From Thermomonas sp. S9 (GTDB lineage Bacteria; Pseudomonadota; Gammaproteobacteria; Xanthomonadales; Xanthomonadaceae): DNA of 64,000 nucleotides. The stretch spans positions 372,001-436,000 of the forward strand of contig NZ_JAJDFY010000001.1 of the NCBI RefSeq assembly GCF_024704365.1, given 5' to 3'. Shown here in pieces: positions 16,096 through 61,644 of the stretch. The notes under the pieces were generated by a model. That model saw only the letters and a program-made list of their open reading frames with translations, was not told where the DNA came from and did no database searches. The translations under genes were made by a program, and so were the position numbers. Position 1 is the first letter of the stretch; each line of letters starts with the position of its first letter.

Positions 16096-16241
16096 TCAGC
16101 CCTGTACCGGCGGCGGATCCTGGGCCGGGGCGGCCGGCGGCGCGTCGGGTGCCGGCTTGTCCGGCAGCACCAGCGCCCCTTGTTGCCGCAGGCGGCCAGC
16201 AGGCAGGCGAGCACGGACAGCAGGAGCAGGCGTCGGGTCAT
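16096..16241 (-). CDS. lptM: LptM (YifL)-like small lipoprotein, one frameshift
   Basis: The tiny lipoprotein gene encodes [20 protein letters not shown], a signal peptide with lipobox LLAAC. One base is missing in the next G run (16178-16182), after which the other frame gives [18 protein letters not shown], the LptM-like continuation. The mature part is only about 28 residues. In E. coli LptM assists oxidative maturation of LptD in the LPS export machine; the same position directly before dapF supports the assignment. A TACACT box lies exactly 6 nt before the ATG (minus strand 16253-16248), suggesting a leaderless start for the operon. Confidence 0.8.
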
Positions 16242-16314
16242 GCCGGCAGTGTACCCGCGGCCGCGGCCCACTGTCGCGCGCGTGGCCGCGCCCGCGGGGC
16301 ATGCATGGTCGTGC

Positions 16315-16677
16315 TCATGGCCGTGGCTCCGGGCGCCGCCACAGCCACAGCGCGACCAGCGCCATCACCGCGTCCACCGTGGCCGCCATCCACGGTTGCG
16401 GCGCGGTGAACCACACGCCGACGCCGGAGGCTGCCATCATCACCGTGGCCAGCCACTTGGCGCGCCGGCTCACGGTGCCCTCGCGCTCCCAGTCCAGGAT
16501 CGCGCGGCCGAACTGCGGGTGCCGCAGCAGCCAACCGCGCAGGCGCTGCGAGCCGCGCGCGGCGGCGAACGCCGACAGCAGGATGAATGGCACCGTCGGC
16601 ATCACCGGCAGCAGCACGCCGATGATGCCCAGCGCCAGGCAGGTCCAGGCCAACGCGGCCCACAGCCAACGGGTCAT
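16315..16677 (-). CDS. DUF454 (YbaN-type) inner-membrane protein
   Basis: The 120-residue protein starts [20 protein letters not shown] and continues into [20 protein letters not shown], the typical DUF454 glycine/proline-rich helical pair. Then comes the conserved [16 protein letters not shown] motif and two further helices near the C-terminus. YbaN proteins are small inner-membrane proteins of unknown function. The gene stands alone between lptM (73 bp away) and the peptidase gene, on the same strand as both. Confidence 0.86.
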
Positions 16678-16793
16678 GGGGCTATCGCCTTTGCTGTCGC
16701 AGCGCGCACCGCGGGGGGTGTGATCGTGCTGTACGGACTCATGCGGAAAACACCGCGCCTGGCCGGGCGCTCCTGGGAGGAGGTGAGCGGAGG

Positions 16794-18911: not shown

Positions 18912-18984
18912 GGGGACAAGACCGGCGATCAGTGCGTGGGGTTGCCTGAATGGGGCGTCGCAAGGGGGTTTGCAACGCTTTGCT

Positions 18985-19010
18985 CGTCATCCCCGCGCAA
19001 GCGGGGATCC
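18985..19010. repeat. Short palindromic REP-like repeat
   Basis: The 171 bp between the two peptidase genes contain a palindromic stretch (CCCCGC-GCAA-GCGGGG core) within a CGTCATCCCCGC...GCGGGGATCC context. That is the usual form of interspersed extragenic palindromes in xanthomonads. A degenerate partner (CGCTGGAATAACGCCGGAAG) lies about 55 bp further on. Copy number in the genome cannot be checked from one window, so the REP assignment is tentative. Confidence 0.4.
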
Positions 19011-19082
19011 ATGGGCGTCGTGCACGGCGCAACCGGGGGCGGTGGCCCGGGCTTCCCCCTTTCGCTGGAATAACGCCGGAAG

Positions 19083-21215: not shown

Positions 21216-21316
21216 GCGCAGGACTCTCCGTTGGGCGGGGGAGACGAACGCTAGCACAGGCCTGCAATCCGGGAATGCGACCAGCACCCCCATGACACGC
21301 GCGACGATCCTCGTGT

Positions 21317-31584: not shown

Positions 31585-32555
31585 GCGTCGTCCTGATGGT
31601 TCGACAGCGCCAGTTGCAGGTGCGCGCGCAGCTGTTCGCGCAGGGCGCGCGGCTCCACGATTTCGGCGTCGGCGCCGTACTGCAGCACGTCCATCAGCAG
31701 CTCGCGCGGGACCGAGTATGGCAGCTTCAGCTCATAGCGGCCGTCCGGCAGGAAGCGGCCCTGCTGCTGCGAATGCCAGCGTTCGTCGGCCACCCAGCGC
31801 GCGGCCTTGGCCGAGAAGCGGATGGTGGCCCAGCCCTTGGGCGCTCCGGAGAAAATGCCGTAGCCGGCGGCCAGGTGCGCATCCAGCGCCGCCTCGTCCA
31901 CGTCGCGCGCGGCGGCATCCAGCAGGCGCGCGCCGCTGATGCGGTCGATCGAGAAGCTGCGCAGGGCTTCGCGCTCTTCGTCCCAGGCGTCGAGGTACCA
32001 GTTGTCGCGGTAGTGGGTGAGCCGCTGCGGGCTGACCGTGCGCCGGGTGCGCTCGTCGGTGGTGCGCGCGCGGTAGTCGAAGGCCAGCTGGCGCCGGTCC
32101 AGCACCGCCGAGGCGACGATCCGGAACACATGCTCGTCCATCCGGCGGCCGCGGTGGGGAATCACCCGCACCCGTTCCAGCGGCCAGCGCTTGCCGCCGG
32201 ACTGCGCCTCCAGCAGCTTCTCCACCCGCTGCTGCAATGGCGCCAGCGCCGACGACAGCATGCCGCCGCTGCTGCGCGCCAGCAGCTGCTGCGCGGCCAG
32301 CAGCGCGTGCAGCTCCTCCGAGCTCAGCCACAGGCCCGGCAGCTCGAAGCGCTCGGCCTCGGCCTTGTCGTAGTGGAACCCGGCCTCGCCGTTGCCGACC
32401 ACCGGCGCCATCAGCGCATCGCGCAGGAAGGCGATGTCGCGGTACACGGTGGCGCGCGAGCAGCCCAGCGCATCCTGCAGGTGGGCCACGCTCACTGGCC
32501 GCCGCGCGGCGCGCAGGTGGCGATCCAGGGCGATGATGCGTTCGTAGCGGTCCAT
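31581..32555 (-). CDS. WYL-domain transcriptional regulator (YafY/PafC type)
   Basis: The 324-residue protein has an N-terminal HTH_11-type DNA-binding domain (VSVAHLQDALGCSRATVYRD) and a central WYL domain (LAFDYRARTTDERTRRTVSP, LTHYRDNWYLDAWDEERE, FSIDRISGARLL), followed by a WCX-type C-terminal extension (APKGWATIRFSAKAARWV). WYL regulators respond to nucleic acid or nucleotide ligands. Context (coupled to a patatin phospholipase) does not show the target. A CATAAT box lies exactly 6 nt before the ATG (32567-32562, minus strand), suggesting a leaderless transcript. Confidence 0.92.
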   Translation of the reverse strand: MDRYERIIALDRHLRAARRPVSVAHLQDALGCSRATVYRDIAFLRDALMAPVVGNGEAGFHYDKAEAERFELPGLWLSSEELHALLAAQQLLARSSGGMLSSALAPLQQRVEKLLEAQSGGKRWPLERVRVIPHRGRRMDEHVFRIVASAVLDRRQLAFDYRARTTDERTRRTVSPQRLTHYRDNWYLDAWDEEREALRSFSIDRISGARLLDAAARDVDEAALDAHLAAGYGIFSGAPKGWATIRFSAKAARWVADERWHSQQQGRFLPDGRYELKLPYSVPRELLMDVLQYGADAEIVEPRALREQLRAHLQLALSNHQDDA

Positions 32556-32654
32556 GCCCGGATTATGCGGCAGCCGGTGGCGGGTTCGGCGGTCATCGGC
32601 AGGCTGCCGCGGATTCGTTAGACTTGCTGTCAGTCCCTGCCTGATGCGTGTCGC

Positions 32655-33297: not shown

Positions 33298-34212
33298 TCA
33301 GGTGGCATCGATCAGCGCGCGCGCGCCCTGCGCCAGCAGCGCCCGCGCCACCGCCATCCCCAGCGCGTCCGGGTCGGCCGCCGATCCTTCCGCCTGCGCC
33401 CGCACCTGGCGACCGTCGCTGGCGCTGCCGACCAGCCCCTGCAGGTGCAGGCGCGCGCCGTCCAGGGTGGCCAGCGCCGCCACCGGCACGTGACAGCTGC
33501 CGTGCAGGGCGCGGTTCATCGCGCGCTCGGCTTCCACGCAGGCGCGGGTGGGCGGATCGTCCAGCGCCGCGCACAGCGCCAGGGTGGCGGCATCGTCGGC
33601 GCGGCATTCGATCGCGATCGCGCCCTGCGCCGGCGCCGGCAGCCAGTCCGGCGCCGTCAGCCGCGCGCACACACGTTCGCCCAGCCCCAGCCGTTCCAGC
33701 CCGGCGCAGGCCAGCACGATCGCGTCGTAGTCGCCGGCATCGAGCCTGGCCAGGCGGGTGTTCACGTTGCCGCGCAGATCGCGCAGTTCGAGGTCGGGGC
33801 GCCGCGCGCGCAGCTGCGCCTGCCGGCGCAGCGAGGAGGTGCCGACCCGCGCGCCAGGGGGTAGCGCGGCCAGGTCCGCAAAATGCGGGCTGACGAACGC
33901 GTCTGCCGGATCGTGGCGGGCCAGGATCGCGCCCAGCGCGAAGCCCGGCTCCAGTTCCATCGGTACGTCTTTGAGCGAATGCACCGCGCAGTCGGCATCA
34001 AAGCGCTGGATCGCCAGTTCCAGCTCTTTCAGGAACAGCCCCTTGCCGCCGATCGCCGCCAGCGAGCGGTCGAGGATTTCATCGCCGCGCGTGCTCAGCG
34101 GCACCAGTTCGACGTCCAGGCCGGGGTGGGCCTGCTGCAGGCGGGTGGCGACGTGCTCGGTCTGCCACAGGGCGAGCGGGCTCTTGCGGGTGGCGATGCG
34201 CAGGCGGGTCAT
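33298..34212 (-). CDS. hemC: Hydroxymethylbilane synthase (porphobilinogen deaminase)
   Basis: The 304-residue enzyme makes hydroxymethylbilane in heme synthesis. Diagnostic segments are [64 protein letters not shown] and the dipyrromethane cofactor cysteine in [11 protein letters not shown]. The start at 34212 lies exactly 6 nt after GATAAT (34224-34219, minus strand) with no Shine-Dalgarno, so the mRNA may be leaderless. An algR-like gene lies 52 bp upstream, the same pairing as algR-hemC in pseudomonads. Confidence 0.97.
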
Positions 34213-34264
34213 GCGCGGATTATCGCCGTTCCGCGGCCGGTTCCGCTGCGGGCGATGCGGTCGG

Positions 34265-39834: not shown

Positions 39835-39925
39835 GGAAGCGGTACCTGTGGAAGGTCTGCGCGTGACGCAGGAAAGAACCCAGCATTATACCGTGCAGGC
39901 GGAACATCCGCCCGCGCGGGCCTGG

Positions 39926-40365
39926 TCACGGCCGCAGCAGGAAGGTGACGGGGCCGTCGTTGACCAGGCTGACCACCATATGGGCGCCGAAGCGGCCGGT
40001 TTCCACCCCGGCGGGTGCAGTTCGCGGCAGAGCGTCACCAGGCGTTCGAATTCGCGGCGGGCCTGCTCCGGCGGCGCGGCACTGCCGAAGCTGGGGCGCA
40101 TGCCGCTGCGGGTGTCGGCGGCGAGGGTGAACTGGCTGACCAGCAGCAGCCCGCCGCCGGTGTCGGCCAGCGAGCGGTTCATGCGTCCGGCGGCGTCCTC
40201 GAATACGCGGTAGCCGAGCAGCCGTTGCGCCAGCCGCCTTGCCTGCGCCTCGCCATCGTCGGGCTCGATCCCGACCAGCGCCAGCAGTCCGGGGCCGATC
40301 GCGCCCACTGCCTCGCCATCGACGGTCACCCGGGCTGCGGTCACGCGCTGGATCAGGGCAAGCAT
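39926..40365 (-). CDS. dtd: D-aminoacyl-tRNA deacylase, one frameshift
   Basis: Dtd removes D-amino acids from mischarged tRNA. The start MLALIQRVTAARVTVDGEAV and LLLVSQFTLAADTRSGMRPS (with the SQ-T motif of the active site) are in one frame. A missing G near 40008-40011 shifts to VETGRFGAHMVVSLVNDGPV, which includes the conserved NxGPVT cross-subunit motif. Restored length is 146 residues, normal for the family. TACAAT lies exactly 6 nt upstream of the ATG, implying a leaderless message from the divergent promoter shared with the acyltransferase gene. Confidence 0.92.
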
Positions 40366-40367
40366 AC

Positions 40368-40399
40368 CGGCATTGTAGGCGGACCCACCTACAATGCCG
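40368..40399. promoter_or_regulatory. Palindromic divergent promoter between dtd and the acyltransferase gene
   Basis: A perfect 12-bp inverted repeat (CGGCATTGTAGG / CCTACAATGCCG, 8-bp spacer) places a TACAAT -10-like hexamer on each strand: 40377-40372 for dtd and 40390-40395 for the acyltransferase. Each hexamer lies 6-7 nt from an ATG, so both transcripts are predicted to begin at their start codons. No clear -35 boxes are visible. The symmetry could also be an operator. Confidence 0.6.
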
Positions 40400-40402
40400 A
40401 TG

Positions 40403-41320
40403 ATGACGGAGTTTCTCGCTACCCTGCTGTACGCCCCCGCCTGGCTGGCGGCGCGCCTGCCGTGGCCGCTGCTGCGGGCGCTGGCCGACGCCCTGGCCTG
40501 GCTGTGGCTGCGTCTGGACGCGCGTGAGGCGCGGGTGGCGCGGCGCAATCTGGAGCTCATCCGCCCGTCCCTGGCACCCGCCGAACGTGAGCGTTTGCTG
40601 GGTGAAATCATGTGCACCACCACCCGCCAGGCGCTGGAAACCCTGCGGCTGTGGACACGCCCGCCCGCGCGCAATCTGGCCGATATCGTCGAAGTCCATG
40701 GCGAGGCGCTGTTCGATGCCGCTCTGCGCAGCGGACGTGGGCTGATCGTGGCCGCCCCGCACCTGGGCAATTGGGAGCTGCTGAACCAGTGGCTGGCGCA
40801 CAAGACCCCGCTGGCGATCCTGTACCGCCCGCCGGAGTCGGCGGTCGGCGAAGCCTTCCTGCGCCGCGCCCGCGCCCACGCCGGCGGGCAGGTGGAGCAG
40901 GTCCGCGCCGAGGCGGCGGGCGTGCGCACCCTGCTCAAGCGCCTGCAGAAGGGCGGCGTGGTCGGGATCCTGCCCGACCAGCAGCCGAAGGCCGGGGAGG
41001 GCGAGTTCGCGCCGTTCTTCGGCAAGCCGGCGCTGACCATGACCCTGCTCTCGCGGCTGGCCGCGCGCAGCGGGGCGCAGGTGCTGCTGGCCTGGTGTCG
41101 GCGCCTGCCGGGCAAGGGCGCTCCGCGCTTCACCCTGCACATCGCTTCAGCGCCGGCGCAGGTGGCGGATGCGGATCCGGCGCGCGCGGTGGCGGCCCTG
41201 AACGCTGCGCTGGAGGCGGCGATCGGGCAGGACTTCACCCAGTACCAGTGGACCTACAAGCGCTACACCCTGCGTCCGCCGGGCAGCGGCGAGGACAACC
41301 CCTACCGCGATCTGTACTGA
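40403..41320 (+). CDS. Lysophospholipid/lipid A acyltransferase (LpxL/HtrB family)
   Basis: The protein of about 305 residues has a single N-terminal hydrophobic segment and the LpxL-family motif GLIVAAPHLGNWEL (H-x4-E/N region). It also has LAILYRPPES, GGVVGILPDQQPKAGEGEF and the C-terminal QYQWTYKRY. Such enzymes add secondary acyl chains to lipid A from acyl-ACP at the inner membrane. Three in-frame ATGs lie within ten bases (40394, 40400, 40403). The last lies 7 nt after TACAAT, as expected for a leaderless start; the first would be inside the -10 box. Confidence 0.9.
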   Translation: MTEFLATLLYAPAWLAARLPWPLLRALADALAWLWLRLDAREARVARRNLELIRPSLAPAERERLLGEIMCTTTRQALETLRLWTRPPARNLADIVEVHGEALFDAALRSGRGLIVAAPHLGNWELLNQWLAHKTPLAILYRPPESAVGEAFLRRARAHAGGQVEQVRAEAAGVRTLLKRLQKGGVVGILPDQQPKAGEGEFAPFFGKPALTMTLLSRLAARSGAQVLLAWCRRLPGKGAPRFTLHIASAPAQVADADPARAVAALNAALEAAIGQDFTQYQWTYKRYTLRPPGSGEDNPYRDLY

Positions 41321-41333
41321 GCGCGCTGCGCCG

Positions 41334-42940
41334 TCAGCGCGGCTGATAGCGCAACGAATGAGCCGCCGGCGGCAGCGGGCGCTGCTGCGCCGGCAGGCCG
41401 AGCCAGACCTCGGCCGGCCACACCTGCAGCCAGCGCAGCCGCCATGGCTGCTGGAATAGCGGCGCGGGCGTCTGCGCGGGGTGACCGGATTCCACCACCA
41501 GCAGCCCTTGCGGATGCCGGCGCGCCCACTGCCGGGCGTCGGCCTCGTCCAGCGCCGCCACCGGCGTCTGCAGGCGACCGGCGAAGTGGAACTGCAGCTG
41601 ATAGACGCCCAGATAGCCCAGCGGGCGGCCCTGCCTGGCCGCGCTGGCCAGCACCTGCGCGGTCGGGGCCAGGTCGTACTGCGCGCGCAGCAGGGGGTTG
41701 CGGCGGCATGGAGCGTAGCCACCGCCAGCAGCAGCCCGGCCGCGTGCGCCGGCAGGCTGCGCCAGCGCCACAGGGCCACGCCGAGCAGGAGCAGCGCGAA
41801 GCCGGCCAGCGCTGCGCTGCGCTGCACTTCGGCGGGCAGCGGCGGCCAGCCGAAGTGCGCGGCCACCAGCAGTGCGCCCAGCGCCACCAGCAGCAGACCC
41901 GGCATCCAGCCCAGATGCGGCCGGCGCTCGGCGGCGGCCGCCAGCAGCAGCGCGAAGGCGGGGAAATCCGGCAGCAGGTAGTAGGCCTGCTTGCCGCTGA
42001 TCAGGCTGAACAGCAGCAGCACGCCGAGCAACCACATCCACGGCAGGCGCAGCGCCGGATCGCGCCACAGCGCCGGCACCTGCCGCCACCACCAGGCCTG
42101 CCACCACCACGGCGCCAGCAGCACCAGCAGCACCGGGAGATACCACCACCATGGCTCGGCGTGATCGAAGCTGTGCTGGATGCGCCCGGCGGTCTGGGTC
42201 ACCAGCAACGCATGCCGGTATTCGGGATCGCCCAGCAGCAGCGCCGGGAGCAGCCACAGCGCGAACAGCGCGATGCCGCCCAGCACCGCCAGCGTGGCGT
42301 TGCGCGCGAAGCGGCGGCCATCGGCGCGCGCCGCCGGATGCCACAGGCGCGCGGTGAGCAGCGGCACCCCCAGATGCAGCAGCGCCACCGGGCCCTTGGC
42401 CAGCAGGCCGAGCCCCACCGCCAGTGCCAGCCCGATCCAGCCCGGGCGCCAGCCATCGCCCTGGCGGCGGCACAGCGCCAGCAGCCCGCCCAGCACGGCT
42501 GCGGCCAGCGGCAGCTCGTACATCACCTGCCAGGAGAACAGCACGAAGTACCACAGCCCGACCATCACCCAGGCGGTGCCGGACGCGATGCGCGGACGCT
42601 GCGGCAGCAGCCGCTGCGCCAGCAGCCCGCTCTGCACGATCACCAGACCGGCCAGCAGCACCATCAGCAGGCGCGGCCAGACATCGCTCACGCCGCCCGC
42701 CGCCCAGCCGGCATGGATCAGCCACGGCAGCAGCGGGGTCTTGTGCGAATACGGCGCACCGTTGAACAGCGGCACCAGGTAGCTGCCGCGCGCCCACATT
42801 TCCCAGGCCACCGCCAGGGTGCGGGTGGAATACAGCGGCACCGGGCCGTGCAGGAAGATCGACGGCAGTGCGACCGTGAGCCAGGTCAGCAGCGGCAGGC
42901 GCAGGGCGCGCGCTGCGCGCAGTTCGTGCAGGAAGGACAT
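41334..42940 (-). CDS. ArnT/PMT-like family 39 glycosyltransferase, one frameshift
   Basis: The integral membrane protein of about 535 residues has some ten hydrophobic segments (for example LPWMWLLGVLLLFSLISG). Its start, LPSIFLHGPVPLYSTRTLAV and MWARGSYLVPLFNGAPYSHK, fits the first periplasmic loop of ArnT-type transferases, which use polyprenyl-phosphate sugars. The conserved ISGKQAYYLLPDFPA follows. A frame change near 41705 joins to LLRAQYDLAPTAQVL and a soluble C-terminal domain. It may decorate lipid A, as the adjacent convergent gene is a lipid A-type acyltransferase. TATCTT lies 6 nt before the ATG. Confidence 0.88.
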
Positions 42941-43013
42941 TGGGCAAAGATACTGCACAGGCTTGCGGCCTGGGCGACAATGGCGGCGATCCATCCGCGC
43001 AAGGAACCTTTCG

Positions 43014-44660: not shown

Positions 44661-44888
44661 ATGGACCTGCTGGTCATCCTGCTGGTGTTGCTCCTCGCCG
44701 GGGGCGTGCATTCGGCCATCCACGGCGTGGTCAAGCCGCTGGCGGATCGCGCCTATCCCGCGGAGGCATCCTCGCCACCACCGCCCCCGTCGCCCGCAGC
44801 CACCGCCCGCCGTCGTCGCCGCCGCGTCTGGCTGGTGCTCGCGATCTGGATTCTCATCGGCAGTCTCATGCAGCTGTTCCCGCGCTGA
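44661..44888 (+). CDS. Small two-helix membrane protein of the prophage scrap
   Basis: The 75-residue protein has a first membrane helix (MDLLVILLVLLLAGGVHSAI), a proline- and arginine-rich middle (SSPPPPPSPAATARRRRRR) and a second helix (VWLVLAIWILIGSLMQLF). No family is recognised; it resembles small phage membrane proteins only in general character. TAGGAT lies exactly 6 nt before the ATG, matching the leaderless pattern seen at resident genes, so it could equally be a host gene. Confidence 0.5.
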   Translation: MDLLVILLVLLLAGGVHSAIHGVVKPLADRAYPAEASSPPPPPSPAATARRRRRRVWLVLAIWILIGSLMQLFPR

Positions 44889-49627: not shown

Positions 49628-52393
49628 TCAGTGCGCCTCGTCCCAGTTCGCGCCCACCCCGCCCTCCACCAGCAGCGGCACCCGCAGCTCGGCCACGCCC
49701 GCCATCAGCGCGGGCACCTGCGCCTGCAGCGCGGGCACGAAGTCTTCATCGGCCTCGAACACCAGCTCGTCGTGCACCTGCAGGATCATCAGCGCGCGCG
49801 GCGCGCCGGCGGCGGTGCGCTGGCCGTCCAGCCACGCATCCACCGCCACCATCGCGCGCTTGATGATGTCGGCGGCGGTGCCCTGCATCGGCGCGTTGAT
49901 CGCGGCGCGCTCGGCGCCGGCACGCTGCGCGGCGTTGCGCGAGTGGATGTACTCCAGCGCCAGCCGCCGGCCGAACACGGTCTCGACGTAGCCCTGCTCG
50001 CGCGCCTGCGCGCGGGTGCGCTCCATGTAGTCGCGCACGCCCGGATAGCGGCTGAAGTAGAGCGCGATGTAGTCCTGCGCCTGGCCGCGGTCGATCCCGA
50101 GCTGGCGCGCCAGCCCGAACGCGCCCATGCCGTAGATCAGCCCGAAGTTGATCGCCTTGGCCGCGCGCCGCTCCTCGCTGGTCACCGCTTCCAGCGGCTT
50201 GCCCAGCACCTCGGCGGCGGTCGCGCGATGGATGTCCGCGCCCTGCGCGAACGCGCGCAGCAGCGCCGGGTCCTGCGACAGGTGGGCCATGATCCGCAGC
50301 TCGATTTGCGAGTAGTCGAACGACAGGAGGCGGCGCCCCGGCGGCGCGATGAACGCGGCGCGGATGCGGCGGCCCTCCTCGGTGCGCACCGGGATGTTCT
50401 GCAGGTTGGGATCGGACGAGGACAGCCGCCCGGTGGCGGCGCCGGCCTGGTGGTAGCTGGTATGCACGCGCCCGCTGGCGGGGTTGACCATCTCCGGCAG
50501 CTTGTCGGTGTAGGTGCTGCGCAGCTTGGCCAGGCCGCGGTAGTCGAGGATCACCCGCGGCAGTTCGTGCAGGTCGGCGATCGCTTCCAGCGCTTCCTCG
50601 TTGGTCGAAGGCGCACCGCCCGGGGTCTTCACCCGCGCCGGCAGTTTGAGCTCGTCGAACAGCAGCGCGCCCAGCTGCTTGGGCGAATCCAGGTTGAAGC
50701 TGCGCCCGGCCAGCTCGGTGGCGCGCTGCTGCAGGGCGAGCATGCGCCGGGAGAGGTCGGCCGACTGCCGGCGCAGTTCCTCCACGTCGATCATCACGCC
50801 GTTGTCCTCGATCCGCGCCAGTACCGGCACCAGCGGCATCTCGATGTCGCGATAGACCGACTGCAGGCGCGGCGCGGCCGCAAGTTTGGGCGCCAGCACG
50901 CGGTGCAACCGCAGGGTGATGTCGGCGTCTTCGGCGGCATAGCGGGTGGCCGCCTCGATCGCCACCTGCGAGAACGGGATCTGCCTGGCGCCCTTGCCGG
51001 CCACATCCTCGTACTTGAGGGTGTCGTAGCCGAGGTGGCGGCGCGCCAGCGAATCCATGTCGTGGCGGGCCAGCCCAGCCTCCAGCACGAAGCTCTCCAG
51101 CAGGGTGTCGTCGGCATAGCCGCGCACATCCACGCCGTGGCGGCGCAGCACGTGCAGGTCGTACTTGCCGTGCTGGCCGAGCTTCTTCCTGGCCGGGTCT
51201 TCCAGCAGCGGGCGCAGCGCCTCCAGCACCGCGGCGCGATCCAGCTGCGTGGGCGCGCCGGGATAGGCGTGCGCCAGCGGGATGTAGCAGGCGACCCCGG
51301 GTTCCACGCAGAAGCTGAGGCCGACCAGGTTGGCGCGCAGCGGGTCGAGGCTGTCGGTCTCGCTGTCGAACGCGAATTCCTCCGCCGTGCGCAGGCGCGC
51401 GATCCAGTCGTCCAGCTGCGCCCGGGTCAGCACGGCTTCGTACGCGCCCGGCGCGGCCAGCACCGGGTCGGTCTGCGTGGCTGCGGCTGCGGACGCGGCG
51501 GTAGGCGCGGGGGCCGCGGCGGACACGCCCGCATCCAGTTCCTTCAGCGCCTGGTTGAACCCGAAGCGGGTATAGAGCGCGCGCAGCGCATCCACATTGC
51601 GCGGGCGCAGGGCGAGATCGGCCGGCGCCACGTCCAGCGCCACGTCGGTCTTGATGGTGACCAGCGCGCGGTTCAGCGGCAGCCGCGACAGCGCCGCGCG
51701 CAGGTTGTCGCCGATCTTGCCTTTGATGGCCTCGGCGTTTTCGGTCACGCCCGCCAGCGAGCCGTATTCGGCCAGCCATTTGGCCGCGGTCTTCGGCCCG
51801 CACTTCTCCACGCCCGGCACGTTGTCGATGCTGTCGCCCATCAGCGCCAGGTAATCGACGATCTGCGCCGGGCGCACGCCGAACTTGGCGAGCACCGCTT
51901 CCTCCGAATCCAGCCGGCTGCCGCTCATGGTGTTGACCAGCGCGATCGAGCCGCGTCCGGCGTCCGCCGGCGGCCGCACCAGCTGCGCGAAATCCTTGTC
52001 GCCGGTGGAGACGGTCACCTGCATGCCCTGCTGCGCCGCGCGCACGGCCAGGGTGCCGATCACGTCGTCGGCCTCCACCCCCGGCACGCGCAGGATCGGG
52101 ATGCCCAGCGCCGCCACGACCTCCAGCATCGGCGCCACCTGCGCGCGCAGGTCGTCCGGCATCGGCGGACGGTTGGCCTTGTAGTCGGGGTACAGCGCGT
52201 CGCGGAAAGTCGGCCCCGGCGCGTCCACCACGAAGGCGATGTGCTCGGGCTGCTCCTTCAGGTGCGCGCGCAGCATGTTGACCACGCCGAACAGCGCGCC
52301 GGTCGGCTCGCCGGCCGCGTTCGACAGCGGCGGCAGCGCGTGGTAGGCGCGGTACAGGTAGGAGGAACCGTCGATCAGGACCAGGCGTGTCAT
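49628..52393 (-). CDS. polA: DNA polymerase I
   Basis: The 921-residue protein has the N-terminal 5'-nuclease (LVLIDGSSYLYRAYHALPPL, GVEADDVIGTLAV, LMGDSIDNVPGV), a 3'-5' exonuclease domain (EFAFDSETDSLDP, RYAAEDADITLRLH) with its acidic residues present, and a C-terminal polymerase (SSDPNLQNIPVRTEEGR, FDYSQIELRIMAHLSQ, RRAAKAINFGLIYGMG, QVHDELVFE). It acts in Okazaki fragment processing and repair. TAGAAT lies exactly 6 nt before the ATG (52405-52400), so it is probably leaderless. It is divergent from prpF. Confidence 0.98.
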   Translation of the reverse strand: MTRLVLIDGSSYLYRAYHALPPLSNAAGEPTGALFGVVNMLRAHLKEQPEHIAFVVDAPGPTFRDALYPDYKANRPPMPDDLRAQVAPMLEVVAALGIPILRVPGVEADDVIGTLAVRAAQQGMQVTVSTGDKDFAQLVRPPADAGRGSIALVNTMSGSRLDSEEAVLAKFGVRPAQIVDYLALMGDSIDNVPGVEKCGPKTAAKWLAEYGSLAGVTENAEAIKGKIGDNLRAALSRLPLNRALVTIKTDVALDVAPADLALRPRNVDALRALYTRFGFNQALKELDAGVSAAAPAPTAASAAAATQTDPVLAAPGAYEAVLTRAQLDDWIARLRTAEEFAFDSETDSLDPLRANLVGLSFCVEPGVACYIPLAHAYPGAPTQLDRAAVLEALRPLLEDPARKKLGQHGKYDLHVLRRHGVDVRGYADDTLLESFVLEAGLARHDMDSLARRHLGYDTLKYEDVAGKGARQIPFSQVAIEAATRYAAEDADITLRLHRVLAPKLAAAPRLQSVYRDIEMPLVPVLARIEDNGVMIDVEELRRQSADLSRRMLALQQRATELAGRSFNLDSPKQLGALLFDELKLPARVKTPGGAPSTNEEALEAIADLHELPRVILDYRGLAKLRSTYTDKLPEMVNPASGRVHTSYHQAGAATGRLSSSDPNLQNIPVRTEEGRRIRAAFIAPPGRRLLSFDYSQIELRIMAHLSQDPALLRAFAQGADIHRATAAEVLGKPLEAVTSEERRAAKAINFGLIYGMGAFGLARQLGIDRGQAQDYIALYFSRYPGVRDYMERTRAQAREQGYVETVFGRRLALEYIHSRNAAQRAGAERAAINAPMQGTAADIIKRAMVAVDAWLDGQRTAAGAPRALMILQVHDELVFEADEDFVPALQAQVPALMAGVAELRVPLLVEGGVGANWDEAH

Positions 52394-52470
52394 CCCGCGA
52401 TTCTACGCAGCACCGCCTGCCGGTGCCGGTGGAGGGATAATGGCCGCCCCACCGCCACGCGAGTCCCGCC

Positions 52471-53655
52471 ATGCCGCATGCCCCGCAGCTCCGTATTCCC
52501 GCCACCTACATGCGCGGCGGCACCAGCAAGGGCGTGTTCTTCCGGCTGCAGGACCTGCCGGTTGAGGCGCAGGTGCCGGGGCCGGCGCGGGATGCGCTGC
52601 TGCGGCGGGTGATCGGCTCGCCCGACCCCTACGGCAAGCACACCGACGGCATGGGCGGCGCGACCTCGTCCACCTCCAAGTGCGTGATCATCTCCACCAG
52701 CTCCCGGCCCGATCACGACGTGGATTATCTGTACGGGCAGGTCAGCATCGACAGCGCGTTCGTGGACTGGTCCGGCAACTGCGGCAACCTGTCCGCCGCG
52801 GTCGGCCCGTTCGCGGCCGCCAGCGGCTTCCTCCCGGCCGAACGCATCCCGCAGGACGGCACCGTCACCGTGCGCGTGCGGCAAGCCAATATCGGCAAGA
52901 CTATCCTGGTGCACGTGCCCATCAGCGGCGGCCAGGTGCAGGAAACCGGCGACTTCGAACTGGACGGAGTGGCCTTCCCGGCGGCGGAGATCGTGCTGGA
53001 GTTCCTCGATCCAGCCGACGACGCAGGCGAGGGCGGCGCGATGTTCCCCACCGGCAACCTGGTCGATACTCTCGACGTGCCCGGCGTCGGCCCCCTGCGG
53101 GCGACGCTGATCAATGCCGGCATCCCCACCGTGTTCGTGAACGCCGTCGACCTCGGCTACGACGGCACCGAGCTGCAGCCGGCGATCAACGACGACAAGG
53201 CCGCGCTGGCGAAATTGGAAGCCATCCGCATCGCCGGCGCGCTGCGCATGGGCCTGATCCAGGCGCCGGAGGAGGCCGCCACCCGCCAGCACACGCCCAA
53301 AGTGGCGTTCGTGGCGCCGCCGCAGGCCTATGTGGCCTCCAGCGGCAAGCCGATCGCGGCTGATGCCATCGACCTCAACGTGCGCGCGCTGTCGATGGGC
53401 AAGCTGCACCACGCGATGATGGGCACTGCCTCGGTCGCGATCGCCACCGCCGCCGCGGTGCCCGGCACGCTGGTGAACCTGGCCGCCGGCGGCGGCCGGC
53501 GCGAGGCGGTGCGCTTCGGGCACCCTTCCGGCACGCTGCGGGTGGGCGCCACGGTCGAGCAGCGCGACGGCCAGTGGACGGTGACGCGCGCGGTGATGAG
53601 CCGCAGCGCGCGGGTGCTGATGGAAGGCCACGTGCGGGTGCCGCGCACGTTCTGA
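52471..53655 (+). CDS. prpF: 2-methylaconitate cis-trans isomerase PrpF family
   Basis: The 394-residue protein of the diaminopimelate-epimerase-like superfamily has the PrpF start IPATYMRGGTSKGVFFRLQD, HTDGMGGATSSTSKCVIIS, and the conserved DWSGNCGNLSAAVGPFA with the active-site Cys, ending EGHVRVPRTF. PrpF works with AcnD in the 2-methylcitrate pathway of propionate use. No prpB, prpC or acnD gene is in the window, so it may be a stand-alone PrpF-like isomerase (for example 4-oxalomesaconate-type). It is convergent with the SDR gene (31 bp). Confidence 0.92.
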   Translation: MPHAPQLRIPATYMRGGTSKGVFFRLQDLPVEAQVPGPARDALLRRVIGSPDPYGKHTDGMGGATSSTSKCVIISTSSRPDHDVDYLYGQVSIDSAFVDWSGNCGNLSAAVGPFAAASGFLPAERIPQDGTVTVRVRQANIGKTILVHVPISGGQVQETGDFELDGVAFPAAEIVLEFLDPADDAGEGGAMFPTGNLVDTLDVPGVGPLRATLINAGIPTVFVNAVDLGYDGTELQPAINDDKAALAKLEAIRIAGALRMGLIQAPEEAATRQHTPKVAFVAPPQAYVASSGKPIAADAIDLNVRALSMGKLHHAMMGTASVAIATAAAVPGTLVNLAAGGGRREAVRFGHPSGTLRVGATVEQRDGQWTVTRAVMSRSARVLMEGHVRVPRTF

Positions 53656-53686
53656 GGCACGCGGCGCGCGGCTCCCGCCGCCCGGC

Positions 53687-54562
53687 TCACCCCTCGGGCG
53701 CGAATCCGGCCTTGCGCAGCTCGTGGCGGGCCTGGTCGAAGCCCTGCATCGGCGCGAAGTCGCCGTTGCGGTCGGTGAGCTCGGCCCAGCGCGCCAGGAT
53801 CTGCTCGCCGCTGGCCGCCTCGCCCAAATGGATGCCCTGGGTCAGCGCGACATAGGCCAGCTCGAACCCGCCGGCACCGGCGCTGAGGATGGCGCGGTTG
53901 GGCGCGTTCTCGGCCACCAGCGCCAGCACCGCCGGGCTGACCAGCTCCGGCTTGAACCAGGCCAGCTGCTCCGGCGGCAGGATGCCTTCCAGCATCCGCG
54001 TGGCGGCCAACGGAGCCAGGCAGTTGACCCGGATGTCGTGCCTGGCGCCCTCGATCCCGAGGGTCTGCATCAATCCCACAAGCGCCATCTTGGCGGCGGC
54101 GTAGTTGGCCTGGCCGAAGTTGCCGTACAGCCCGCTGCAGGAGGTGGTCATCACGATGCGCCCGTAGTTGCGTGCGCGCATGCCGTCCCACACCGCCTTG
54201 GTGCAGTGCACCGCGCCCATCAGGTGTACCTCGAGCACCTGCCGGAACTCCTCCAGCGTCATCTTGGCGAAGCTCCTGTCGCGCAGGATGCCGGCGTTGT
54301 TGACCAGGATGTCCACCCGGCCCCAGTCCTGCTCGATGGTCTGCACCATGTCCTGCACTGCCGCGGGATCGTCCACCGCGCATTGCGCCGGGCGCGCGCT
54401 GCCGCCGGCGGCGCGGATCTCGGCGGCGACCAGGTCGGCATCCTCGCCCAGATCGTTCACCACCACCCTGGCGCCGCGGCTGGCCAGTAGCAGCGCATGC
54501 GCGCGGCCCAGCCCGCCGCCGGCGCCGGTGATGATCGCCACCCGCCCACTCAAATCGATCAT
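53687..54562 (-). CDS. Short-chain dehydrogenase, MFE-2/3-hydroxyacyl-CoA dehydrogenase type
   Basis: The 291-residue SDR has the NAD-binding motif VAIITGAGGGLGRAHALLL, NDLGEDADL (Asp at the end of beta-2, NAD preference), LVNNAGILRDRSFAKM, catalytic Ser/Tyr/Lys in TSCSGLYGNFGQANYAAAKM and IRVNCLAPLAATRM. The HAL-LL and GILRDRSF features are those of the dehydrogenase module of peroxisomal multifunctional enzyme 2, so the substrate may be a 3-hydroxyacyl-CoA. Its ATG overlaps the likely HAD-gene stop as ATGA. Confidence 0.9.
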   Translation of the reverse strand: MIDLSGRVAIITGAGGGLGRAHALLLASRGARVVVNDLGEDADLVAAEIRAAGGSARPAQCAVDDPAAVQDMVQTIEQDWGRVDILVNNAGILRDRSFAKMTLEEFRQVLEVHLMGAVHCTKAVWDGMRARNYGRIVMTTSCSGLYGNFGQANYAAAKMALVGLMQTLGIEGARHDIRVNCLAPLAATRMLEGILPPEQLAWFKPELVSPAVLALVAENAPNRAILSAGAGGFELAYVALTQGIHLGEAASGEQILARWAELTDRNGDFAPMQGFDQARHELRKAGFAPEG

Positions 54563-55316
54563 GCAGGCACTCCTTTTCGTGCATGGCCAGCAGTGTATCC
54601 AGCGCCGCCACCACCGCCGGCAGCGCGTCCAGCGCCGCCACCCGGCGCAGGCGGGGATGCTCCGCGGCGACCTCATGTGCGGCCTCGTGGCGCCAGGTGG
54701 TGTGATAGGGCACGTGCACGCCCCAGCCGCCCAGCGCCAGCACCGGCGCGATGTCCGAGCGCAGCGAATTGCCCACCATCAAAAAGCGCGCGGCCGGCAC
54801 GCCGAACTCTTCCAGCAGCCGTGCATAGGTCGGCACGTCCTTCTCGCTGACGATCTCGATCCGCCGGAACAGCTCGGACAGCCCGGACTGGCGCACCTTC
54901 GCCTCCTGGTGGAACAGATCGCCCTTGGTGATCAGCACCACCGGGAACTTTGCGGCCACCGCCTCCACCGCCGCGCGCACGCCCGGCAGCAGCTCCACCG
55001 GATGGCGCAGCAGCGCCTTGGCGATCGCCACGATGCGGTGGATGTCGGCGGCGCTGATGCGCCCGCCGGTGATCTCCACCGCCGCCTCCACCATCGACAG
55101 CGCCATCCCCTTCACGCCATAGCCGAAGAGGGCGATGTTGCGCGCCTCGTACTCGTACAGGCGCTGGCCGGCATCCTGAAGGTCCACGTAGCCGGCGATG
55201 ATGTGCTCGAACTGCGCCTGCGCCGCGTCGAAATGGTCCTGGCTGCGCCAGAGGGTGTCGTCGGCATCGAAGCCGACCAGCGCGAGGCCGCGCGCAGACG
55301 AAGACGGGAAATCCAT
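54559..55316 (-). CDS. HAD-family hydrolase, probable frameshift near the 3' end
   Basis: The protein of about 250 residues has HAD motif I LVGFDADDTLWRSQDHFD, a helical cap (FGYGVKGMALSMVEAAVEIT), motif II VVLITKGD, the conserved KDVPTYARLLEE and motif III/IV FLMVGNSLRSDIAPVLALGG. Without correction the frame runs on antisense-like through the SDR gene; the natural stop is the TGA that overlaps the SDR ATG, one frame away, so an indel probably lies near 54580-54640. The ATG at 55316 lies exactly 6 nt after TAGAAT. The substrate is unknown. Confidence 0.84.
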
Positions 55317-55386
55317 CACCGCATTCTAAACACCGGGCCGCTGCGGCATGATGCGCCGTCGTTTCCTCCCCCCTACCGCCGCCGCC

Positions 55387-55965: not shown

Positions 55966-55975
55966 CCGGCGGTGC

Positions 55976-57453: not shown

Positions 57454-57469
57454 GCGGCGTGTCGCCGGC

Positions 57470-58338: not shown

Positions 58339-58343
58339 CGCGC

Positions 58344-58889
58344 TCACCCCAGCGTGCCCTGCGGCAGCACCAGCCGCTGCACCGGATACCCGCGGCGGGC
58401 GGCGCGCTCGCGGATCGCGTTGAACTCCGCGCGCGGCATCGCCGGCGTCCGCGAGAGCACCCACAGGTATTTGCGCGACGGGCCGCCGACCACCGCCCAG
58501 CGGTAGTCGGGATCGAGCTCGACCACCCAGTAATCGGCCCAGGTGAACGGCAGCCACGCCAGCCAGTCCGGCGCGAAACGCACCTGCAGCGCGCCCGGCT
58601 GGCCCGGCACCCGGCGCGCCACGCCGTCGGATACGTCGAAGCGTCCGTCGCGGGTGCGGCAGGCGTTGCGCACGCTCACCAGTCCGTCCGCGCGCAGGCT
58701 GTAGGTGGCGCTGATGTCGGCCACGCACTGGCGCTGGAAGAACATCGGCAGATGCGCGATCTCATGCCAGCTGCCGGCATAGCGCTGCAGGTCCAGCGCC
58801 GGCACCGGCACGTTCGGCAGCGTCGGCGGCTCCTGCGCCGCGGCCGTGGAGGCGGCGAGCGCGAGGGCGAATGCGAGGGGACGCAGCAT
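58344..58889 (-). CDS. blc: Bacterial lipocalin (Blc family)
   Basis: The 181-residue protein has a signal peptide (MLRPLAFALALAASTAAAQE) without a lipobox, then the lipocalin G-x-W signature LQRYAGSWHEIAHLPMFFQR, CVADISATYSL, WLPFTWADYWVVELDPDY and the third-motif region YLWVLSRTPAM. Blc proteins bind fatty acids or lysophospholipids at the outer membrane. Unlike E. coli Blc it appears to be periplasmic rather than lipid-anchored. The ATG at 58889 is chosen because the signal peptide starts there. Confidence 0.92.
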   Translation of the reverse strand: MLRPLAFALALAASTAAAQEPPTLPNVPVPALDLQRYAGSWHEIAHLPMFFQRQCVADISATYSLRADGLVSVRNACRTRDGRFDVSDGVARRVPGQPGALQVRFAPDWLAWLPFTWADYWVVELDPDYRWAVVGGPSRKYLWVLSRTPAMPRAEFNAIRERAARRGYPVQRLVLPQGTLG

Positions 58890-58980
58890 GGGCAGGCTCC
58901 GGCGGGGGATGCGTGCATCCTCGCGCCGCGCGCGTGGTGGCGGGGTGAATGCGCGCACGGGCACCCTGCGCCGGCCCGCG

Positions 58981-59315
58981 TCACCCCTCCAGGTAGAACT
59001 CCAGCGGGATCAGCTCCACCGCCCAGCCCCCCTCTTCACCGATCTGCGCGGCCGGGTGCATGGCGGCCAGGCGCAGCGCTTCGTCGCGGCTGTCAGCTTC
59101 GATGATGAACAGCCCCACCACTTCCTTGGCCTCCGCGTAGGGGCCATCGCTGACGTGCGTGTTACCGTCACGCGGGCGCAGCGTGGCCCAGGTGTCCAGG
59201 TCGCCCAGCGATGCGGACAGCCGCACCTTGCCGGTGGCGCGCATCGCCTGGTCCAGCGGCGGGCATTGGCGACCAACGCCTTCACGGCGTCGGGCGGAGT
59301 CGCCGCGCCGGCCAT
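58981..59315 (-). CDS. YCII-related (DGPF-domain) protein, one frameshift
   Basis: The C-terminal 80 residues (MRATGKVRLSASLGDLDTWA, VSDGPYAEAKEVVGLFIIEA, VELIPLEFYLEG) hold the DGPF-type YCII motif with the catalytic-looking Asp. The N-terminal piece MAGAATPPDAVKALVANA is in another frame; one indel near 59262-59268 joins them to about 112 residues. Family members usually start with a further strand (M-x-F-L-L), so the true start may lie upstream. YCII proteins are small dimeric enzymes or binding proteins of unclear function. Confidence 0.74.
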
Positions 59316-59342
59316 CGGGTGATCGGTGTCGCGATGCCTCGC

Positions 59343-60376
59343 CTACCGCGCACACGCCTTCGGCCCGCCGGCCGTGGCGAAGGCGCGTGCGAAGAAGGGC
59401 AGCATCGCGGTCTCGAAGCGTGCGCGGGCGTGGTCGGTATGGGTGCCGTCGTAGGTGACGAAGGTGTGCGCGATGCCGTGCCGATCCAGCGCCTGCGAAA
59501 ATGCGCGCGCGCCGGCCGTCACGCTGGTGATCTGGTCCTGCAGCCCGGCGTCGAAGGCGATCCCGCACAGGCGCCGATAGCCGGCCGGATCGCGGTCGAG
59601 CCGATAGAGCGGCATGTAGCGCTTCCACGTTGCCTCGACGGCGGCGTGCCGCTCGATTCGCCCGTCGGGCGCGGTCGTGAACGGCAGCGGCGGCTCGGCG
59701 TCCGGGGCGGCGCCATCGGGCGCGGCGAAGGCCATCGCCATCGCACGCAGCCAGCCGCCGAGGGGCTGTTGCCAGCGCGCGCCTGCCTGCGCCAGATCGC
59801 CGGCGAAGCCCAGGCAGCAGGGGCTCACGGCATACACGTAAGCGAACGTGTCGGGATGCCGGCCGGCCAAGTACAGGGCGCCGAACCCGCCCATTGACTG
59901 ACCCGCCAGCCCGCGCGCCCGGCGCTCCGGGCGCGTGCGGAAGCGCGCATCGACGAACGCCACCAGCTCCTTCGCCACGAAGTCTTCCCAGTGGCCGAAG
60001 CGGGCGGAGTTGACGTAGAACGAGCCGCCGTAGCGATTGTTCGCCGCCGGCATCACCACGATGAACTCGTCGGGGCCGGCCATCCGGTCCAGCGTGGCGC
60101 CGAGGTCCATGCCCTGGTAGCTGCCATCGAACCACTCGCCGGGCTCGGACGTGGCCCCGTGCAGCAGGTACACCACCGGATAGCGCCGGGTGGCCTGGGT
60201 GTCATAGCTGGGCGGCAGATAGACCGTGATCGCACGGTCCGGCGAATCCCCGATCGCGTTCCCGCGCAGGGCCGTGGAGTGCAGTGTCTCCACCACCACC
60301 CGCGCCTGCGCGTCCACGGCCGCAAGGCCGGCCAGGGCAGCAGAAGGCCCAGAACCCATCCGACTCGGTGCCTCAT
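59343..60376 (-). CDS. Secreted esterase D-like alpha/beta hydrolase, one frameshift
   Basis: A signal peptide (MRHRVGWVLGLLLPWPALR) is in one frame. After an indel near 60315-60325 the other frame gives VVVETLHSTALRGNAIGDSP, YPVVYLLHGATSEPGEWFDG, the nucleophile RGLAGQSMGGFGALYLAGRH and YDGTHTDHARARFETAML with the catalytic His. This is the putative-esterase (EstD, FrsA-like/antigen-85-like) family of about 345 residues. Export is inferred from the signal. The substrate is unknown. It follows in the same direction as the YCII gene, 27 bp apart. Confidence 0.84.
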
Positions 60377-60590
60377 CCCGCCCTCCTCGGCCACCCGCGA
60401 CCGGAGCAGCTTAGTCCCGAACCGGGGGAGCGGAAAAGAATGGGAGTGGGCTGCTTACGCGGGCGTTCCTGCGGTGGATGCGGCGACTCATCCTGGCGAA
60501 GGGTGGGCGGCATCCGTCGAGCACGCCCGATCGTGCTTCTGCAGTTTTGCCGCGAGCGGGGATTCGTGCCCGCGCGGGTTTCGGTGCCGC

Positions 60591-61523
60591 TTATGCCGAT
60601 GCCAGCCAGTCGCGTGGGCGTAGGTAGTCGGCCAGGCGGGCTTCCGGGCTGCCGGGTTCGGGGGCGTAGCCGTATTCCCAGCGCACCAGCGGCGGCAGGC
60701 TCATCAGGATGGATTCGGTGCGGCCGCCGCTCTGCAGGCCGAACAGGGTGCCGCGGTCGTACACCAGGTTGAACTCCACGTAGCGCCCGCGGCGGTAGAG
60801 CTGGAACTGGCGCTCGCGTTCGCCATACGGCGTGTCCTTGCGGCGCGCGACGAGCGGCAGGTAGGCATCGAGGAAGCCATTGCCGACTGCCTGCATGTAG
60901 GCGAAGTCGGCATCGAAATCTTCGCTCAGGTCGTCGAAGAACAGCCCGCCCACGCCGCGGGTTTCGTTGCGGTGCCTGAGGAAGAAATACTCGTCGCACC
61001 AGCGCTTGTGCGCGGCGTAGCGCGCCTGCCCGCCGAACGGCTCGCACAGTGCGCGCGCGGTGCGGTGCCAGTGCCGCACGTCCTCGTCGAAGGGATAGAA
61101 CGGCGTCAGGTCGAAGCCGCCGCCAAACCACCACGCCACCGTTTCGCCGTCGCGCTCGGCGCGGAAGTGGCGCACGTTGGCGTGGGTGGTCGGCAGGTAC
61201 GGGTTGCGCGGGTGGAACACCAGTGACACGCCCAGCGCGCGCCAGGATGCGCCTGCCAGCTCCGGCCGGTGGGCGGTGGCGGACGGCGGCAGGCGGTCGC
61301 CCGACACGTCGGAGAAGCCGATCCCCGCCTGCTCGAACACCGCGCCCTCGCGCAGCACGCGGGTGCGCCCGCCGCCGCGGATGGGCGAGGTGTCCGGGTC
61401 CTTCGCCCAGGCGTCTTCACGAAAGCGCGCGCTGCCGTCGGCGTCTTCGATCGCCGCGCAGATACGGTCCTGCAGGCCGGTGAGGTAGTCGCGGACGGTG
61501 GAAAGCGGCGCGATGGCGGTCAT
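60591..61523 (-). CDS. hemF: Oxygen-dependent coproporphyrinogen III oxidase
   Basis: The 310-residue enzyme converts coproporphyrinogen III to protoporphyrinogen IX in heme synthesis. Diagnostic segments are [69 protein letters not shown] and [20 protein letters not shown] (61535-61530) lies exactly 6 nt before the ATG with no Shine-Dalgarno, predicting a leaderless transcript. With hemC at 33.3 kb it is the second heme gene in the window. The 214 bp downstream show no gene. Confidence 0.98.
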
Positions 61524-61644
61524 GCCGGCATTGTAGGGGCACGTGTGGGCCTGGCGTCACGCAACGGAAGCATTTGCACGGATAATGTGCGCCGGGACCT
61601 TCTCCGCAGGGATCGCGGATCCATCTCTGGGGAGAGAACTCACC

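What the first reader, a model, noticed from the sequence alone, without database searches (positions are those of the whole stretch)
16239..61535. Leaderless-mRNA signature: -10 box exactly 6 nt before ATG at ten or more genes
A TANAAT-like hexamer followed by exactly 6 nt and ATG is seen at lptM (16253), the WYL regulator (32567), hemC (34224), dtd (40377), GT39 (42952), the gene at 44661, the OleB-like gene (48523), polA (52405), HAD (55328) and hemF (61535); the LpxL-type gene has 7 nt. Sigma-70 starts 6-7 nt after the hexamer, so the start codon would be the first transcribed base. None has a Shine-Dalgarno. The exact constant spacing is far too regular to be chance.
Basis: partly seen in the sequence, partly recalled or inferred. 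Interest (0 to 1): 0.72.

Follow-up and report, generated by a model that had tools for sequence, protein, structure and literature searches.

The report
Conserved promoters for leaderless bacterial genes
In this Thermomonas-like bacterium roughly one gene in twenty appears to be transcribed from the first letter of its start codon, leaving no room for the usual ribosome-binding site; this is a known way of starting genes in this bacterial order, here seen to be kept gene by gene in related species.

Summary
The spacing observation is real. All ten named sites have exactly 6 nt between hexamer and ATG, but the consensus is looser than stated: 5 of 10 are TANAAT, 8 of 10 TANNNT, hemC (GATAAT) and WYL (CATAAT) neither. 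One site (44661) is better read as Shine-Dalgarno AGGA. Genome-wide, TANAAT-N6-ATG occurs 36 times, against 2 at N13 and 4 for N6-GTG. The peak persists in 400 kb of the genome without the window. The strongest evidence is comparative: upstream DNA is scrambled between relatives, yet a -10 hexamer stands 6 or 7 nt from the ATG in 77 of 79 distinct polA upstreams, 27 of 28 hemC, 25 of 27 lpxL, 37 of 59 hemF and 21 of 32 WYL, own copies excluded. Where PolA starts earlier (9 of 80 loci) the box precedes the earlier ATG. dtd (3 of 30) and OleB (3 of 25) show it only in few relatives. Leaderless transcription is very likely, but not new: Zheng et al. 2011 (PMC3160421) describe TANNNT about 12 bp upstream of starts and name Xanthomonadales. 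Possibly new is the gene-specific fixing of the hexamer (polA TAGAAT, hemC GATAAT, WYL CATAAT).

The parts
16239..16253 (-). lptM: -10 TACACT (16248-16253), 6-nt spacer, ATG 16239-16241
   Evidence: TACACT or TATACT with N6 also before lptM in 4 of 7 relatives looked at (L163, L164, L172, L176); in the other three lptM was not found
32553..32567 (-). WYL-domain regulator: -10 CATAAT (32562-32567), N6, ATG 32553-32555
   Evidence: CATAAT at N6 or N7 in 21 of 32 distinct ortholog upstreams, own copy excluded
34210..34224 (-). hemC: -10 GATAAT (34219-34224), N6, ATG 34210-34212
   Evidence: -10 at N6/N7 in 27 of 28 ortholog upstreams, GATAAT in 25
40363..40377 (-). dtd: -10 TACAAT (40372-40377), N6, ATG 40363-40365
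   Evidence: only 3 of 30 ortholog upstreams have a -10 there
40390..40405 (+). LpxL-type acyltransferase, divergent from dtd: -10 TACAAT (40390-40395), N7, ATG 40403-40405
   Evidence: TA[ACG]A[AC]T at N6/N7 in 25 of 27 ortholog upstreams; own copy and L162 were scored at an earlier ATG and read as N7 by hand
42938..42952 (-).
   Evidence: the one relative found (L161) has TATCCT-N6-ATG; no Pfam hit for its first 424 residues
44649..44663 (+). ORF at 44661: TAGGAT-N6-ATG, better read as Shine-Dalgarno AGGA 7 nt before ATG
   Evidence: no Pfam hit, no convincing ortholog
   Evidence: 3 of 25 ortholog upstreams
52391..52405 (-). polA: -10 TAGAAT (52400-52405), N6, ATG 52391-52393
   Evidence: 78 of 80 loci, 77 of 79 distinct upstreams at N6/N7
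55314..55328 (-). HAD-family hydrolase: -10 TAGAAT (55323-55328), N6, ATG 55314-55316
   Evidence: 11 of 21 ortholog upstreams
61521..61535 (-). hemF: -10 TACAAT (61530-61535), N6, ATG 61521-61523
   Evidence: 37 of 59 distinct upstreams at N6/N7

Best explanation
These are housekeeping-type promoters whose -10 element sits so close to the gene that RNA polymerase starts at the A of the start codon, giving leaderless mRNAs read from a 5'-terminal AUG. Shown: a -10-like hexamer at 6 (less often 7) nt before ATG, a genome-wide excess at that spacing, conservation of hexamer and spacing in relatives, and co-movement with the start codon. Inferred: that the transcript starts at the A (a -10 hexamer normally ends about 6-7 nt before the start point; recalled), and that translation begins by binding of a ribosome with initiator tRNA directly at the 5'-AUG (recalled). 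An estimated 4-5% of genes use it; many others have Shine-Dalgarno-like words, and the anti-SD end pattern of 16S rRNA is present.
For: Spacing: 36 at N6 against 2 at N13, 4 for N6-GTG, 0 for the reversed pattern; tally of listed places; peak without the window. Gene-anchored: a loose -10 at N6 of a candidate ATG in 16 and at N7 in 4 of 330 called genes with an ATG candidate, background 1.3 per spacing. Comparative, own copies excluded: polA 77/79, hemC 27/28, lpxL 25/27, hemF 37/59, WYL 21/32, HAD 11/21 distinct upstreams at N6/N7. In all 9 of 80 PolA loci whose codon aligned to the own start is no start codon, TAGAAT stands 6-7 nt before an earlier in-frame ATG, 1 to 10 codons up. In a sister family 7 polA upstreams have a non-T first base and all 7 carry TGC just before the hexamer. 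34 of 36 strict sites open into a reading frame. Leaderless-type genes fold less at the 5' end than other ATG starts (first 30 nt: -2.97 against -4.64 kcal/mol, P 0.010; 40 nt P 0.037; 60 nt P 0.062; n 34 and 240).
Against: No RNA 5' end was mapped. No -35 element is seen: TTG at -25 to -21 from the hexamer in 0 of 36 strict sites; leadered-type TANAAT sites have it in only 2 of 48, so the lack is not special to the class. dtd (3/30) and OleB (3/25) are not leaderless-type in most relatives; hemF, WYL and HAD lack the box in a third to a half of theirs. Two of the 36 strict sites run into early stops. 44661 fits SD better. The base before ATG is G, a purine, in 61 of 171 N6 and 9 of 39 N7 cases, so a start one base earlier is not excluded there.
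Confidence: 0.92

Rival explanations
1. The promoters are real but give transcripts with very short leaders (1-5 nt), or the genes also have upstream promoters, so that leaderless mRNA is only part of their output.
For: N7 sites are common (14 of 77 polA, 10 of 25 lpxL, 9 of 22 WYL, 3 of 28 hemC, 3 of 37 hemF). G precedes the ATG in 61 of 171 N6 and 9 of 39 N7 cases. In the two Arenimonas loci the polA TAGAAT lies about 28 nt before the ATG. Upstream transcription cannot be seen in DNA.
Against: C precedes ATG in 108 of 171 N6 and 30 of 39 N7 cases and A in only 1 of 210, so the A of ATG is usually the first purine offered at that place; N5 (2) and N8 (3) are low beside N6 (29) among the listed places.
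Confidence: 0.25
2. The hexamer is not a promoter but an AU-rich translation element that keeps the ribosome-binding region unstructured.
For: Gene starts of both kinds are less structured than gene interiors, the leaderless-type ones most.
Against: The spacer is mostly G/C; extended -10 TGC accompanies the loss of the first T in a sister family; the same hexamer also appears 23-30 nt before other ATGs.
Confidence: 0.04
3. Chance matches selected by eye in one window.
For: The window overlaps the richest 30 kb of the genome; 44661 looks like such a case; the hexamer definition was stretched.
Against: Genome-wide excess also outside the window and conservation in relatives.
Confidence: 0.01

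Closest known systems
TA-led leaderless genes of bacteria (Zheng et al. 2011, PMC3160421; passages seen)
   Same: TANNNT about 12 bp upstream of the translation start, resembling the -10 box. [quoted passage not shown] the estimate here is about 4-5% of called genes.
   Different: That survey classed genes within 20 bp of the start, genome by genome. Here a class with a non-T first base (GATAAT, CATAAT) is conserved, which TANNNT misses, and single genes are followed through a family.
-10 motif adjacent to ORFs in Deinococcus-Thermus (Zhong et al. 2025, PMC12340547; part 1 of 3 of Results read)
   Same: TANNNT mostly 6-7 bp upstream of the ORF, TACACT the commonest form, conserved among homologs within the genus Deinococcus, used to correct start codons; reporter mutants there show a promoter role.
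   Different: Nearly one third of D. radiodurans genes against about one in twenty here; no reporter test here; that paper reports the first T nearly invariant, here hemC and WYL have G and C.
Leaderless mRNAs mapped by RNA sequencing in Cupriavidus metallidurans (PMC7563307, passages) and Bradyrhizobium japonicum (PMC4842269, passages)
   Same: 4.67% of primary starts in Cupriavidus (leader under 5 nt); 192 starts exactly at a start codon in B. japonicum.
   Different: Other classes of bacteria, with RNA evidence. The B. japonicum leaderless motif is an extended -10 (TGnTA), absent here in 210 of 211 aligned family sites.
Leaderless mRNAs in Xanthomonas campestris pv. vesicatoria (Schmidtke et al. 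2012; paper not held; only its reference entry seen)
   Same: Same family; I recall about 14% leaderless mRNAs.
   Different: Not checked; the number is recalled.

Membership tests
TA-led leaderless genes (Zheng et al. 2011) | TANNNT -10-like hexamer about 10-12 bp upstream of the start codon | tested here: met
   8 of 10 named sites; genome-wide N6 peak; hemC and WYL depart in the first base
TA-led leaderless genes (Zheng et al. 2011) | More such sites than expected | tested here: met
   N6 36 against N13 2; 16 against 1.3 per spacing at called genes. Controls are other spacings, not shuffles as in the paper
TA-led leaderless genes (Zheng et al. 2011) | No Shine-Dalgarno before the start | tested here: met
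   9 of 10 named sites by reading; 44661 fails; none of the 21 candidates listed carried the SD flag
Leaderless mRNA | RNA 5' end at the first base of the start codon | not testable with these tools
   no RNA data
Leaderless mRNA | Translation from a 5'-terminal AUG without SD pairing | not testable with these tools
   mostly-ATG use is consistent (N6-ATG 36, N6-GTG 4)
Deinococcus-type -10 motif adjacent to ORF | -10 motif 6-7 bp before the ORF in about a third of genes | tested here: not met
   position met, share only about 4-5% of called genes
Sigma-70 promoter with -35 element | TTG-type -35 element 15-19 bp upstream of the -10 | tested here: not met
   TTG at -25 to -21: 0 of 36 strict sites, 2 of 48 leadered-type sites

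The most novel reading that the evidence does not exclude
Some old leaderless genes each carry their own frozen -10 variant (polA TAGAAT in 76 of 77 matching upstreams, hemC GATAAT in 25 of 27, WYL CATAAT in 21 of 21) while spacer and flanks drift. With no visible -35, promoter strength and start-codon position would then be encoded in one hexamer placed by the ATG, making a fixed-output gene set (polA, heme and envelope genes) whose translation needs no SD pairing and could persist when normal initiation is limited.
Probability: 0.25. Interest if true: 0.55.

Novelty: new member of a known kind. Interest (0 to 1): 0.33.

Why it matters
Where this signature is present it fixes the start codon, which helps annotation of N-termini. 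The family offers many genomes in which gain and loss of leaderless status can be followed gene by gene (widely kept: polA, hemC, lpxL; narrow: dtd, OleB; leadered in Arenimonas polA), which makes the question of why certain housekeeping genes stay leaderless testable. The phenomenon itself is already described for this order.

Tried and rejected
A lack of -35 as a mark special to leaderless promoters: rejected. In 211 aligned family sites TTG stands at each offset from -25 to -19 in 0 or 1 case. Against other TANA[AC]T hexamers of the own sequence TTG at -25 to -21 was 0 of 37 against 8 of 33, but in relatives 1 of 215 against 2 of 65, and 48 leadered-type TANAAT sites of the own genome lack it as well (2 of 48).

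TAG/TAA of the hexamer as the stop codon of an upstream gene: rejected as a general reading, since the third base of the 36 strict sites is C 16, G 13, A 4, T 3.

Extended -10 as a general feature: not in this family (TGn in 1 of 211), present in a sister family.

GTG/TTG leaderless starts: no clear peak for TANAAT; 4 TANNAT-N6-GTG against 1.2 per spacing and 3 GTG/TTG genes with a non-T hexamer at N6 against 0.3 were not followed up.

N6 enrichment as special to this family: not so. In some searches (369 class genomes, read by eye, no statistic) the four genomes of this family have 36, 33, 31 and 45 at N6 against 2, 4, 4 and 3 at N13, and one other-family genome of the order 13 against 4; but other low-background genomes of the class show it too, some with like ratios (18 against 1, 22 against 3, 12 against 1).

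Rows dropped before counts: tblastn hits starting after query residue 12, under 50% identity, with less than 60 nt upstream, or with no start codon nearby; identical upstreams were counted once; where the aligned codon was no start the nearest in-frame ATG was taken. The genome search kept loci for the best 30 matches among 56-60 matching genomes per gene, so counts lean to nearer relatives. Counts include the own copy of hemC, WYL, dtd, OleB, HAD and lpxL; one search leaves these out. Several HAD orthologs with CATACT or GATACT at N6 are counted as misses. WYL and hemC hexamers were selected by a pattern that fixes positions 2 and 4-6 for non-T forms, so only positions 1 and 3 speak to locking. 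One search used the 100 of 123 places that one search listed. The gene caller is home-made (407 genes, some surely false; it missed the frame-shifted HAD gene).
Full report
What the window is. The window is 70.0% GC and lies in a 2.85-Mb, two-contig genome. The nearest named relative by PolA is Thermomonas haemolytica (91% identity), so this is a Thermomonas-like member of Lysobacteraceae (Xanthomonadaceae).

Checking the sites. One search shows exactly six nucleotides between hexamer and ATG at all ten places: TACACT (lptM), CATAAT (WYL), GATAAT (hemC), TACAAT (dtd), TATCTT (GT39), TAGGAT (44661), TACAAT (OleB), TAGAAT (polA), TAGAAT (HAD), TACAAT (hemF). Five fit TANAAT and eight fit TANNNT. 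Pfam supports hemC, dtd, an alpha/beta hydrolase, a HAD hydrolase, the WYL regulator, hemF and the lipid-A acyltransferase (dtd, HAD and GT39 were sent trimmed) and polA. The 44661 ORF and the GT39-type protein had no hit at 0.001, and the lptM reading runs on into dapF. At 44661 the 'hexamer' contains AGGA seven bases before ATG, with AGGAGG upstream, so it is better read as SD-led and I drop it.

Is it more than chance? In the whole genome TANAAT-N6-ATG occurs 36 times, its reversal 0 times, N13 twice, and N6 before GTG four times. Among the 100 of 123 listed places of TANAAT-N0..30-ATG, 29 are N6 and 4 are N7; the other spacings up to N22 have at most 3 each; a second broad rise over N23-N30 fits ordinary leaders. 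In 400 kb from seven relatives TANANT at N6 is 10 against 0.81; those stretches were chosen around hemC, so they include orthologs of window genes. The window is a rich spot: the tightest 30 kb of the genome holds 6 of the 36 sites (P 0.001).

How many genes? With a simple codon-usage gene caller on 464 kb (407 genes), a loose -10 stands at N6 of a candidate ATG in 16 genes and at N7 in 4, against 1.3 per spacing. The excess of about 17 is some 4% of called genes, nearer 5% with GTG/TTG cases. Of the 21 candidates listed, 8 are in the window. A Shine-Dalgarno-like word stands before some candidate start in 158 of 403 genes, against 56 in shifted controls, and the 16S 3'-end pattern with the anti-SD is found at two places. 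Leaderless initiation is thus a minority mode beside SD.

Comparative evidence. The 80 polA loci show scrambled upstream DNA except for TAGAAT and its distance from ATG. In 69 of 80 a TANAAT stands 6 or 7 nt before the ATG aligned to the own start (59 and 10). In nine (L055, L069, L072, L078, L080, L094, L103, L111, L120) the aligned codon is no start codon, and TAGAAT sits 6 or 7 nt before an earlier in-frame ATG, 1 to 10 codons up. The two others are Arenimonas, where TAGAAT lies about 28 nt upstream, an ordinary leader. Counting distinct upstreams without the own copies, a -10-like hexamer stands at N6 or N7 in polA 77 of 79, hemC 27 of 28, lpxL 25 of 27, hemF 37 of 59, WYL 21 of 32, HAD 11 of 21, dtd 3 of 30, OleB 3 of 25 (sequences of all but polA and hemF). 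lptM shows it in the 4 of 7 relatives where lptM was found; GT39 in the one relative found. Leaderless status is therefore widely kept for some genes and narrow for others.

Promoter or translation signal? Among 19 polA loci from other families of the order, 8 have a hexamer of this kind at N6 and one at N5; 10 have none. Seven of the nine have GAGAAT, AAGAAT or GACAAT in place of TA, all seven are from one sister family (f2), and all seven have TGC just before the hexamer. An extended -10 replacing the first T is what a promoter would do (recalled from sigma-70 promoter rules) and is hard to explain as a translation signal. The spacer is mostly G/C, and the base before ATG is A or T in only 2 of 171 N6 and 0 of 39 N7 cases; it is C in 138 of these 210 and G in 70.

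Gene-specific hexamers. The hexamer variant is tied to the gene: polA TAGAAT in 76 of 77, hemC GATAAT in 25 of 27, WYL CATAAT in 21 of 21 matching upstreams, whereas hemF (TAGAAT 23, TACAAT 11, others 3) and lpxL (TAGACT 11, TACACT 6, TAAACT 5, TAGAAT 3) vary. For polA the entropies are 0-0.10 bits in the hexamer against 0.85-1.54 in the spacer. I take this as purifying selection on hexamer identity, perhaps tuning output; no tree-based test was run. Because hemC and WYL do not start with T, a TANNNT definition would miss them.

Mechanism. With the -10 hexamer ending six bases before ATG, sigma-70 polymerase is expected to start at the A (recalled rule). The mRNA would begin 5'-AUG and be read without SD pairing. 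Weaker folding of the first 30 nt (P 0.010; weaker support at 40 and 60 nt) and mostly-ATG use fit this. RNA evidence is missing.

Comparison with what is known. Zheng et al. 2011 (PMC3160421, passages) define TA-led genes by TANNNT about 12 bp upstream of the start, name Xanthomonadales as one of two gamma-proteobacterial groups where they are most found, and give 4.5% (3.0-5.7%) for gamma-Proteobacteria with detected leaderless genes. The estimate here agrees. Zhong et al. 2025 (PMC12340547, part 1 of 3 of Results) show by reporters in Deinococcus that such a hexamer 6-7 bp before the ORF acts as a promoter, and that it is conserved among Deinococcus homologs. Searches for leaderless with Xanthomonadaceae, with Stenotrophomonas, Lysobacter, Xanthomonadales or Thermomonas and with TANNNT, conserved across, orthologs, listings only, showed no paper whose title or abstract start treats gene-specific hexamer conservation in this family; subscription papers are mostly not held, so this is weak evidence of absence.

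Verdict. The phenomenon is ordinary for the order; the frozen gene-specific -10 variants are the part worth a further look.

Noticed in passing
window 40363-40405: dtd and the LpxL-type gene diverge from two TACAAT boxes placed back to back 12 bp apart; the start codons are only 37 bp apart, so each promoter's -35 zone would fall at the other gene's -10 or start. T. haemolytica (L162) keeps both boxes.
   Followed up: partly
window 39886-40365, 41147-42940, 53328-55316, 15255-16241: Reading frames of dtd, the GT39-type gene, the HAD gene and lptM/dapF look frame-shifted toward their ends (odd C-termini, run-on into the next gene); with 89.9% completeness in two contigs this suggests indel errors in the assembly rather than biology.
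   Followed up: no
G000:C1:412363-442030 (window 40363 to beyond the end): Six of the genome's 36 TANAAT-N6-ATG sites, all on the minus strand, lie within 30 kb (P 0.001 by simulation).
   Followed up: partly
G000:C1:879326-879340 (L017): A second gene resembling the PolA 5'-3' exonuclease domain (40% identity over residues 4-303) also begins with TACAAT-N6-ATG, so polA and this paralog both look leaderless.
   Followed up: no
L313-L318, L324 (polA of a sister family in the order): The polA -10 has G or A for its first T (GAGAAT, AAGAAT, GACAAT) and TGC just upstream, an extended -10, at the same place before ATG (N6 in six, N5 in L317).
   Followed up: partly
L125, L127 (Arenimonas polA), also L309: TAGAAT lies about 28 nt before the ATG instead of 6: a switch between leaderless and leadered polA within the family.
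   Followed up: no
G000, 36 strict sites: By eye (names guessed from the N-termini, not searched) several leaderless-type genes look like housekeeping or repair functions such as thymidine kinase, RecO, PrfC, ApaG, LpxH, IspG, QueE.
   Followed up: no
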